Made by a program: the position numbers and the translations under genes. Shown here piece by piece: positions 33,101 through 63,502 of a DNA stretch of 64,000 nucleotides; position 1 is the stretch's first letter; every line of letters begins with the position of its first letter. This DNA is from Cristatella mucedo. Lineage: Eukaryota; Bryozoa; Phylactolaemata; Cristatellidae. The stretch lies in assembly GCA_009760855.2 (NCBI GenBank), contig WPIO01000080.1:1637501-1701500 (forward strand), in the 5' to 3' direction. The notes below the pieces were generated by a model. The model saw only the letters and a list, made by a program, of their open reading frames with translations, was not told where the DNA came from and did not search any database.

Positions 33101-36100
33101 TGCTAGCTACAGCGCCGACATAGCGCTACTATGCTGCAGCGCCGTGCACGCAAGAAACTCGTCAAAAGCTTGACACGGTCGAAGCCGCTCGACGTGTCAA
33201 GCGGCTTGCTTTCACCACCGTACGAGTCGCGTCGAATCTCGCTGATCGTGCAAAAAGTGAAGTCGGTGCAAAGTGACGATTAGCAGCTTTGCATCCTACG
33301 AATAGTCGTCGAGCAAGGGTCTTGCACGTGTACTAGCCGAAGGTCGTCAAGGTCGTTGTAGCTCGGATGAAAGTAAGAATGCTACTCATGGAAAGGAAAG
33401 AACGAAGGGAATGGCTGCAATGGCTGCAGTCGGCTGCGTACTTGTTACACTGCGGACATGTTTATGCAGCTCCTCGACTTACTCGACTTCCCGTGGTCAC
33501 GTGTCGTCCTCTGCCCTGTCTACGGGAGCGCGTGCTGACAGCGTGTGGCTTGCTGCTGCGGCCAAGCGATTGAAGTAGCGGCTTGATCTCTGTTTCAGGT
33601 GGCCATGAATCAGTGTCCGGTGTAAAGGTACGTCTTCAGTAGCAACATCGGCAGCAATCTGTTGTTAGCCGCTGCATGCCAATTCAATGCTACACGTTCA
33701 GTCAGTCTCACCCTCCCTTCCTCCTCCACGTGCATGCATCTCTGCATAGGTTGATTGCATTGTAAGACTAAGTCCGAGACACGAGGGGTGAGTCTGAGTT
33801 GTGTGTGTGTGTGACGGGAGAGATAAAGAGATATGCATGTAGAGAGATGGCAAGCCTGATTTGTTGATAGGACCTCGAGGAGGGAGACCAGCACTGCTGA
33901 AATGAATTGAAAGAATGTCGTAGCTAAGGCAGTTTATTGTTCGTGACGGAAAACGTAGTTAAAGTAGTCTATTGTTCACAGGAAAATGCATAGTTGAATC
34001 AGTTTATCGTGCTCGACGATGCAATGCAATCAAAGGTTATATAGGGCAATGCTCCTTCGCGACTTTTTGTCGTGGCAAGGAGCATGAACCTGTAAGCATG
34101 CTCGCGCGGTAAGCACGTCGTTGTCGTAGTCTCGAGGAGTCGTTTTCGTTCCAAGTCTTGAGATTAATTTGAAGTAATTAATTGGAAATGAATTGATTTA
34201 ATTTGAATTGAATTTGGGTAAAATAATTGGGATTAATTCAAAGTGAAGTTTATTTGAATGCCTCACTTTACATGTTTAACGATTACAGGCCCAAAGCTTC
34301 GAAATAGGCAAAATAGTGAAGGTCATTGCCGACGTCGACCTCGCCAAGCCACTGCAGAAGGGTCACGGAGGGTGGAATGACGACATGAAAGAGGTTAGTC
34401 ACGTGGCAGCCGGCTTCGGCAGCCATTGCTTGCGTTCACTTGTAGCCGATGTTTACCGCTGCTTCCCAGCCTCCGCCTCTTCTGCTTGGCAGCTGGTGGT
34501 CGTTGAGCCGCGGTCGTAGCTCCGAGCACGGGAGGAAGACAGCTCGAGAGCGTGCACGTGTAACTTTGGAGCACACGTGCGCGAGTGCGCTCGCGAGCGC
34601 ATATGGAAGGAGGCTCTTTGGGGACCGTAGCTCGGCTTCCGTGGCACTGTTGAAACCGTGCTTGCGAGCGTGCACAGCTCGATGGCACCCTTGGTGTGCT
34701 GCTGGTGCGTGCGTCAGCTGCCTCGAGTTCTCGACTCCCGAGTCCTTGGTCGCCAGCTTGCATGCACGAAGGATAACCAATTCCGGCCCTCGGACGGTTC
34801 TGATCTCGAGGTGTTGGTGTACTTCACGGGTTGCACTGTGTCGGCTTTGAGGATCGCGCTGCTCTGCTCGAGCGGAGGAATCGCTCGGTGAGCCGGCAGT
34901 CGATCGCTCACTCGGTTGATGGCGGCCCAAAGTTTGATGCCCGGCTGGATCTGCCTTACTTTGTCTGTAGGCCCTGGGCAAGACTGGTAAAGTTGTCAAA
35001 ATCCATACGAATGGAGACTGTCGAGTCAAGGTGAATAGGCAATGCTGGACGTTCAATCCGAAATGTCTCACCGTGGCATCCGAAGCCGACGTGGATGCGT
35101 ACTTGCAGCACGTGACCAGTGGATCGTCGTCGTCGTCGGACAGTGACATAGCTGGTAACGCTAGAAGAAATGAAAAATAAATAAATCACTGCTTGCTTGC
35201 TGCCTGCGTGAGCGGCCGACCTATCCGTCAAAAAGCAGGTGGATGCGATGACCAGTCGGCCGAGGAGAGGTCCTAGCTAGACGGTCCTCTTGTGTGCTCG
35301 GCTGTGCTTAGGTGGCCGCCGCTGAGTCACCGCCTGCCACGTCACAGCCAGTGAAGTTTAAGAAATAAACTAATAATTATTTATAATTTGTTAAACACTC
35401 ATTCTAATTAATTTAGTAAATACAAAATCATTTATTTATAAAAATTAGAACTTATGAAGCTGACTCTCGGCACTGTTCGGCTCGCTGCTCCAGTGTGCAA
35501 GTTTTCGTCGGCCATCCTAACCGCGATGCGCACCTAATCATGTTATGCGCTTGCCGAATGAAACGACCCACAGATTTGCTTCGTTGTCAGCGAGTTGCTG
35601 CTCGGCGGCTGTGGCTGGTTTGTACCGGGCCCTCATAATGCTAGAGTCACGTTGCTTCACGTCACGTGCTCCACATCGCTCGCGGTGCTCGTTTTAGGGA
35701 TGCTTCGAAGCGCTAAGGGGAGAATGAGGGTGAAGGCACGCGTGCAATACAGAGGCCAGCCGAAGCAGCAGAAGGTGAAGGCCGTCGTGGCGGCTGGGCC
35801 ACTGCTGTTCTGTCGTGTCTGTATGTCGTGTCGAGACTGTGCCACTTTTCTTTTGGTGGTTGCACTCTTTTTTGTTGTCATTGCTCCGGTCAGCTGGTAC
35901 CGACTGCCTTCTTCAGGACACCGTGATGTGGCGGTCTTCATAAGAGCTCGAAGGAAGATTTCCTGCATTGACATGCTTCTCTATTAGTATTGGCAGTATT
36001 TGATACGGTCTGTAGTCTCTCTCATACATCTTTCCTCTGTATTTCACTACTGGTAACAGCTCTATGCAGAACCACTAGTTTCTATGTCTTCCTATTTATC

Positions 36101-63502: not shown

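What the first reader, a model, noticed from the sequence alone, without database searches (positions are those of the whole stretch)
34289..63502. Mind bomb-like gene with the REP-ankyrin cassette repeated in tandem
Canonical Mind bomb proteins have one REP pair and one ankyrin block. Here two complete ankyrin blocks (exons 14-20 and 24-30), each preceded by REP units, follow each other in one phase-compatible exon chain, and a third cassette starts at 63398. This would give a ligase scaffold with repeated substrate-binding or scaffolding modules, a layout I do not know from described Mind bomb proteins.
Basis: partly seen in the sequence, partly recalled or inferred. Interest (0 to 1): 0.92.

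Follow-up and report, generated by a model that had tools for sequence, protein, structure and literature searches.

The report
RING-less Mind bomb-like gene, repeated cassettes
An animal genome carries a relative of the Mind bomb ubiquitin ligases in which the substrate-binding half (REP plus ankyrin repeats) occurs three times in a row and no ubiquitin-transferring RING part could be found, so it looks like a binding scaffold or decoy rather than a ligase; whether all three copies sit on one transcript is not yet shown.

Summary
The anatomy is real and larger than reported. The window is C666:1637501-1701500 of an unnamed 572-Mb eukaryote genome. Behind a MIB_HERC2-ZZ-MIB_HERC2 head (26916-28586) lie three REP-ankyrin cassettes on one strand. 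The third, begun at 63398, is complete beyond the window edge, with five REP units. The best exon chains share one eight-exon phase pattern; ankyrin blocks are 39-50% identical. Pfam recognises nine SH3_15 units, three ankyrin blocks, two MIB_HERC2, one ZZ. Two corrections. (1) No RING was found in 214 kb around the gene by Pfam, own profiles or motif, while 9 of 9 RINGs seen at other Mind bomb loci of this genome match the motif; "ligase" is unsupported. (2) One transcript is not shown. ANK5 joins the next REP exon in frame (0 to 0), but the tail exon between them ends in phase 1 and needs a linker. A linker candidate exists before cassette C, none before B. A neighbouring single-cassette gene has the same ankyrin exon phases, and cassette B is as close to it as to A or C, so B and C may be headless gene copies. 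Best reading: RING-less multivalent Mind bomb-like scaffold, one gene (about 55%).

The parts
26916..27140 (+). exon with first MIB_HERC2 domain (1-1)
   Evidence: PF06701 59.8 bits; exon chain
27748..28029 (+). exon with ZZ finger and start of second MIB_HERC2 (1-1)
   Evidence: PF00569 45 bits
28338..28586 (+). exon with rest of second MIB_HERC2 (1-1)
   Evidence: PF06701 34.4 bits
29414..29553 (+). predicted exon, possibly a degenerate first REP half (1-0)
   Evidence: best 1-to-0 candidate, score 27.3; no Pfam match; inference
31823..31921 (+). REPa, first half (0-0)
   Evidence: Pfam on joined REPa
32685..32835 (+). REPa, second half (0-1)
34289..34393 (+). REPb, first half (0-0)
   Evidence: PF18346 36.6 bits
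34971..35154 (+). REPb, second half and Ser-rich end (0-1)
   Evidence: PF18346 34 bits
38066..38170 (+). cassette A: REPc, first half (0-0)
39921..40083 (+). cassette A: REPc, second half (0-1; donor 40083 scores 4.0, chose 40014)
40334..40440 (+). cassette A: ANK0 (1-0)
40852..41000 (+). cassette A: ANK1 (0-2)
41546..41708 (+). cassette A: ANK2 (2-0)
41829..41980 (+). cassette A: ANK3 (0-2; weak donor 0.1)
44610..44766 (+). cassette A: ANK4 (2-0)
46689..46871 (+). cassette A: ANK5 (0-0)
49450..49669 (+). cassette A: tail exon; end phase 1 (donor 6.8); start is a choice, 49450 in phase 0 (0.7) or 49421 in phase 1 (1.1); no sequence match to tail B
52209..52319 (+). cassette B: REPd, first half (0-0), acceptor 2.7, no in-frame ATG ahead of the REP core
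52844..53096 (+). cassette B: REPd, second half and Ser-rich end (0-1; donor 53096 scores 4.6, chose 53045)
53421..53500 (+). cassette B: ANK0 (1-0)
53671..53819 (+). cassette B: ANK1 (0-2)
57833..58004 (+). cassette B: ANK2 (2-0)
58777..58934 (+). cassette B: ANK3 (0-2; weak donor -1.3)
59664..59787 (+). cassette B: ANK4 (2-0)
60166..60354 (+). cassette B: ANK5 (0-0)
61206..61452 (+). cassette B: tail exon (0-1 through a GC donor) or terminal exon ending at the in-frame stop codon a few codons on
62410..62525 (+). candidate linker exon (1-0), low-complexity A/Q/S/G
   Evidence: acceptor 5.3; composition filter met by 7 of 291 null windows, filter set after the candidate was seen; by score matched in 12 of 150 minus-strand and 13 of 60 plus-strand windows
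63398..63502 (+). cassette C: REPe, first half (0-0), acceptor 0.6; the cassette continues to offset 76284 outside the window

Best explanation
This is a Mind bomb-derived gene without a detectable RING, in a tandem array of Mind bomb-like genes. Shown: a MIB_HERC2-ZZ-MIB_HERC2 head is followed on the same strand by three REP-ankyrin cassettes (REPa-REPb-[REPc-ANK A]; [REPd-ANK B]; REPe-f-g-h-[REPi-ANK C]) whose predicted exons are open and agree in phase pattern, and no RING is found. Inferred: the cassettes are read on one pre-mRNA, spliced ANK5 to the next REP (0 to 0) or through short linker exons, with tail exons as optional ends. Inferred mechanism: the head and the multiplied REP units bind tails of Mind bomb clients several at a time, the ankyrin blocks space or cluster them, and without a RING the protein holds or shields clients from the MIB1-like ligase encoded on C11, or lends them to another ligase, instead of ubiquitylating them itself.
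For: Head. Nine SH3_15 stretches (2+1+1+5) and three ankyrin blocks. Same best phase pattern in three cassettes and in-frame 0-0 junctions. ANK5-to-REP gaps of 5.3 and 3.0 kb, no initial exon above the null 90% point, no polyA signal before C. A coding-like linker of the needed phase at offset 67666-67769 inside cassette C and a candidate before it. No RING. MIB1-like locus with two MIB_HERC2, one ZZ, two REP, ankyrin and three RINGs on C11. [quoted passage not shown] MIB2 RING mutants still bind RIPK1 but fail to regulate it (PMC5912950).
Against: No transcript data. Tail exons end in phase 1, so their inclusion breaks the frame without a linker; between A and B the best candidate is matched by 31 of 150 minus-strand and 19 of 60 plus-strand windows. 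Even the REPh-REPi linker is matched by 3 of 150 and 4 of 60. Cassette B is as similar to neighbouring gene 3 (52%) as to A (50%) or C (48%), and the tree does not group A, B and C. A headless unit on C653 has its own ATG. Two polyA signals lie between A and B. The 5' start and 3' end of the gene and tail C were not located. A RING split by an intron could escape the scans. The RING search also showed no match behind C666 genes 1 and 3 and behind two of the four C653 heads, so RING loss is either common here or sometimes missed. Client binding is untested.
Confidence: 0.5

Rival explanations
1. Three adjacent genes: A with a head, B and C headless REP-ankyrin genes with their own promoters, left over from tandem whole-gene duplication followed by loss of head and RING.
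For: Gene 3 has the same phases in ANK1-ANK5, so the exon pattern is ancestral to whole genes and not proof of internal duplication; B is as close to gene 3 as to A or C; C666 holds three heads for five REP-ankyrin units; on C653 a headless REP exon starting with ATG lies about 10 kb behind a RING exon that ends in a stop codon; two polyA signals lie between A and B and an in-frame stop closely follows tail B.
Against: REPd and REPe first exons have acceptors (2.7 and 0.6) and no in-frame ATG ahead of the REP core; no initial exon above the null 90% point in either gap; gaps are near intron size; no polyA signal in 61440-63400.
Confidence: 0.35
2. A decaying pseudogene array.
For: No RING, 5' and 3' ends not found; REPc lacks the GHGGW motif and some splice sites are weak.
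Against: The anchored exons of all three cassettes are open and could be chained in phase; Pfam scores lie above the curated cut-off for REP, ZZ, MIB_HERC2 and Ank.
Confidence: 0.1
3. A full Mind bomb ligase whose RING exon was missed, being split by an intron, strongly diverged or far downstream.
For: Tail A ends in a strong donor; gene 3's tail has a phase-2 donor, the phase of the best acceptors of the first RING exons on C653; two headed C653 genes also show no RING in the same search.
Against: No RING by Pfam genome search, phmmer, two profiles or motif up to the next head and beyond; the nine RINGs seen on C11 and C653 each lie in one open frame. No stretch that reads N lies between this gene's head and the next head.
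Confidence: 0.05

Closest known systems
MIB1 (Mind bomb 1; MIB1-like locus on C11 of the same genome, human chains 4xi6 and 4tse)
   Same: MIB_HERC2-ZZ-MIB_HERC2 head, REP (SH3_15) units, ankyrin repeats in the same order
   Different: the C11 locus has two REP units, one ankyrin region as far as read, and three RINGs; here nine REP units, three ankyrin blocks and no RING found
Mind bomb-like cluster on C653 (four heads) and C666 genes 1 and 3
   Same: same domain families; gene 3 has the same phases in ANK1-ANK5
   Different: gene 3 has one ankyrin block; six RING places lie in the C653 cluster; ankyrin blocks on C653 were not counted and none of these genes was read in full
Drosophila Mib1 lacking MZM (engineered; PMC11887331, passages read)
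   Same: a REP-bearing protein without the head, the state of cassettes B and C if separate
   Different: engineered, and made by removing only the MZM domain; reported as apparently dominant-negative

Membership tests
Mind bomb E3 ligases (MIB1/MIB2) | N-terminal MIB_HERC2-ZZ-MIB_HERC2 | tested here: met
Mind bomb E3 ligases (MIB1/MIB2) | REP (SH3_15) units after the head | tested here: met
   nine stretches
Mind bomb E3 ligases (MIB1/MIB2) | single ankyrin block after the REP units | tested here: inconclusive
   three blocks on one strand; single per gene only if the cassettes are separate genes
Mind bomb E3 ligases (MIB1/MIB2) | C-terminal RING fingers | tested here: not met
   none on C666; motif scan found only a TRIM-like exon on the plus strand, controls 9 of 9
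Mind bomb E3 ligases (MIB1/MIB2) | all domains on one transcript | not testable with these tools
   no RNA data held
Mind bomb E3 ligases (MIB1/MIB2) | ubiquitin transfer to Notch ligands or other clients | not testable with these tools
   bench assay needed

The most novel reading that the evidence does not exclude
One transcript encodes a protein of at least about 2,000 residues with a Mind bomb head, nine or more REP units and three ankyrin blocks but no RING: a natural multivalent decoy or organiser of Mind bomb clients, formed by tandem duplication of a phase 0-0 cassette, possibly working with the MIB1 encoded on C11 or with the TRIM-like genes that are interleaved with the array.
Probability: 0.35. 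Interest if true: 0.7.

Novelty: new variant of a known kind. Interest (0 to 1): 0.5.

Why it matters
Engineered truncations show that the Mind bomb binding domains and the RING can be uncoupled, and that head-less, REP-bearing Mib1 appears to interfere with Notch-related functions in flies (passages). A natural gene that multiplies the binding modules and has no RING would be an evolved version of such a decoy or scaffold, and the cassette copy number would make the role of REP and ankyrin valency directly testable. Seven searches of open papers, of which I saw only the top of long lists, showed no paper on such a layout or on a Mind bomb tandem expansion; that library misses most subscription papers.

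Tried and rejected
Tried: linker-exon search by splice and codon scores in five gaps and seven gaps. The REPh-REPi linker is matched by 3 of 150 minus-strand and 4 of 60 plus-strand windows; tailB-REPe by 12 of 150 and 13 of 60; tailA-REPd by 31 of 150 and 19 of 60; REPa-REPb by 16 of 150 and 15 of 60; REPb-REPc by 54 of 150 and 23 of 60 (the plus-strand windows may hold exons of other genes). The composition filter was met in 3 of 7 gaps (gene 3 REP-REP, tailB-REPe, REPh-REPi) and not within this gene's own REPa-REPb and REPb-REPc gaps, so its failure at tailA-REPd says little. Tried: initial exons ending in phase 0 in the two gaps, best -0.8 and -5.7 against null 90% points 10.0 and 5.8; as set, that scan could not test the gene's own start, which must end in phase 1. 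Tried: tail C and the gene's end, not found. Tried: tree of ankyrin blocks, unresolved. Tried: naming the organism; COX1 reads open with TGA=W under tables 4, 5 and 9; a spiralian origin is my recollection of such sequences, not a result. Rejected: assembly duplication (ankyrin blocks only 39-50% identical) and simple-repeat artefact (the repeat families listed, 20 of 29 direct and 25 of 966 inverted, do not include the exon cassettes). Left open: that an orphan propeller-like ORF at offset 86735-88006, same strand, is the 3' end of this gene; its phase-1 acceptor fits tails A and B, but two other propeller exons of that family have phase-1 acceptors too.

Full report
What was checked. I write places outside the window as offsets in window coordinates. 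I read 214 kb of C666 around the finding, 7.5 kb of which reads N, part of the MIB1-like locus on C11 and about 25 kb of a second cluster on C653.

Domains. A REP unit matches human MIB1. Pfam on exon-joined translations gives, for the head with REPa and REPb, MIB_HERC2 two stretches, ZZ one and SH3_15 two; for cassette A SH3_15 one and Ank_2 E 2.6e-49; for cassette B SH3_15 one and Ank_2 E 1.6e-47; for cassette C SH3_15 five and Ank_2 E 9.3e-48. That is nine REP units and three ankyrin blocks after one head. The pieces scanned add up to 2,063 residues. They were joined by me at predicted splice sites, not taken from cDNA.

Exons. With splice-site and codon scores, and with neighbours made to agree in phase, the best chains give the same pattern in the three cassettes: REP first half 0-0, REP second half 0-1, ANK0 1-0, ANK1 0-2 (149 bases in all three), ANK2 2-0, ANK3 0-2, ANK4 2-0, ANK5 0-0. 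Some sites are weak (for instance the ANK3 donors of A and B), and the phase-0 end of ANK5 leads the alternatives by 4.6 units in A and 1.6 in C; in B it is fixed by the tail. Tail B is 0-1 through a GC donor, with an in-frame stop a few codons on. Tail A ends in phase 1 at a strong donor, but its start is a choice between phase 0 (0.7) and phase 1 (1.1), and it has no sequence match to tail B. Tail C was not found. The unit from REP to ANK5 is thus phase 0-0 and can be repeated or read through in frame. By eye, REPc, REPd and REPi, the units next to the ankyrin blocks, resemble each other in their second halves. Gene 3, the next Mind bomb-like gene downstream (head at offset 93576), has the same phases in ANK1-ANK5 with a single block, so the pattern is inherited from a whole-gene ancestor.

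One gene or several. For one gene: the first exons of REPd and REPe have acceptors (2.7 and 0.6) and no in-frame start codon ahead of the REP core; initial-exon scans of the two gaps give best scores of -0.8 and -5.7 against null 90% points of 10.0 and 5.8; ANK5-to-REP gaps are 5.3 and 3.0 kb, against a largest intron of 4.0 kb within a cassette and 17 kb from ANK C to the next head; AATAAA/ATTAAA occurs 0 times in 61440-63400, where about one is expected at 0.54 per kb, but twice in 49500-52200. A linker of the needed 1-to-0 phase exists inside cassette C (67666-67769), and a candidate of similar composition lies before cassette C (62410-62525); 7 of 291 null windows met the composition filter, which I set after seeing the candidate. 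By score alone that candidate is matched in 12 of 150 minus-strand and 13 of 60 plus-strand windows. Against: no linker between A and B; the ankyrin tree leaves A, B, C and gene 3 unresolved, with B 50% identical to A, 48% to C and 52% to gene 3; a headless REP exon on C653 starts with its own ATG, with no MIB_HERC2 or ZZ in the 10 kb before it nor in the genome searches between the neighbouring heads. I put one gene carrying at least two cassettes at about 55%.

RING. Pfam zf-C3HC4_3 over the whole genome gave 79 matches (150 of 152 candidates scored, a lower bound): three on the C11 MIB1-like locus, six in the C653 cluster, none on C666. In the same list nothing follows two of the four C653 heads (3708119 and 3775098), so RING loss is either common in these clusters or sometimes missed. 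phmmer with the C11 RINGs gave nothing on C666 below E 0.3, and profiles built from the C11 and C653 RINGs nothing below E 0.09. A motif scan matched 9 of 9 control RINGs; on C666 its full form gave one minus-strand cysteine-rich artefact and its short form, run on the plus strand, one place, a TRIM-like exon at 11242. A RING split by an intron remains possible. The gene should not be called a ligase on this evidence.

Function. From passages of PMC11887331: MIB1 binds the N- and C-box of Jagged1, and Drosophila Mib1 those of Delta, with its MZM and REP domains; Mib1 without MZM appears dominant-negative in a REP-dependent way. From passages of PMC5912950: MIB2 RING mutants bind RIPK1 but fail to regulate it. 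A RING-less protein with many REP units is therefore most simply a binding scaffold or decoy. This step is inference; no binding was tested and conservation of client-contact residues was not examined.

Known or new. Seven searches of open papers showed no paper on a repeated REP-ankyrin layout or a Mind bomb tandem expansion. I saw listings only, some of them the top of longer lists (5 of 4,695, 15 of 37, 12 of 108), plus passages of three papers. The parts are known; the layout, if on one transcript, is a new variant.

Noticed in passing
window 10657-15267 (+) and 15785-20234 (-): Two TRIM-like genes (RING/B-box-like exon, by eye and motif, plus a propeller-like exon) lie between Mind bomb-like genes; Pfam gives only a sub-threshold B-box (E 0.011). 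Relatives recur at offsets about -32, -22 and 121 kb.
   Followed up: partly
C666 offset 86735-88006 (L011:2735-4006, +): An orphan propeller-like ORF of that TRIM-like family sits behind cassette C on the same strand with no RING/B-box relative seen near it; its best acceptor is phase 1, the phase in which tails A and B end, but that phase is also seen in two other propeller exons of the family.
   Followed up: partly
C653:3505286-3798137: A second Mind bomb-like cluster with four heads, six RING places, two heads with no RING behind them in the Pfam list, and one headless REP unit with its own ATG at 3657186.
   Followed up: partly
C22:4181155-4186321, C581:379057, C662:371607: MIB_HERC2 matches outside the Mind bomb loci with no SH3_15 match listed on those contigs.
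   Followed up: no
window 9282-9581, 24087-24365, 36859-37137, 61879-62178: Copies of a dispersed element in both orientations (93-96% identical pairs), two of them in introns or gaps of this locus.
   Followed up: no
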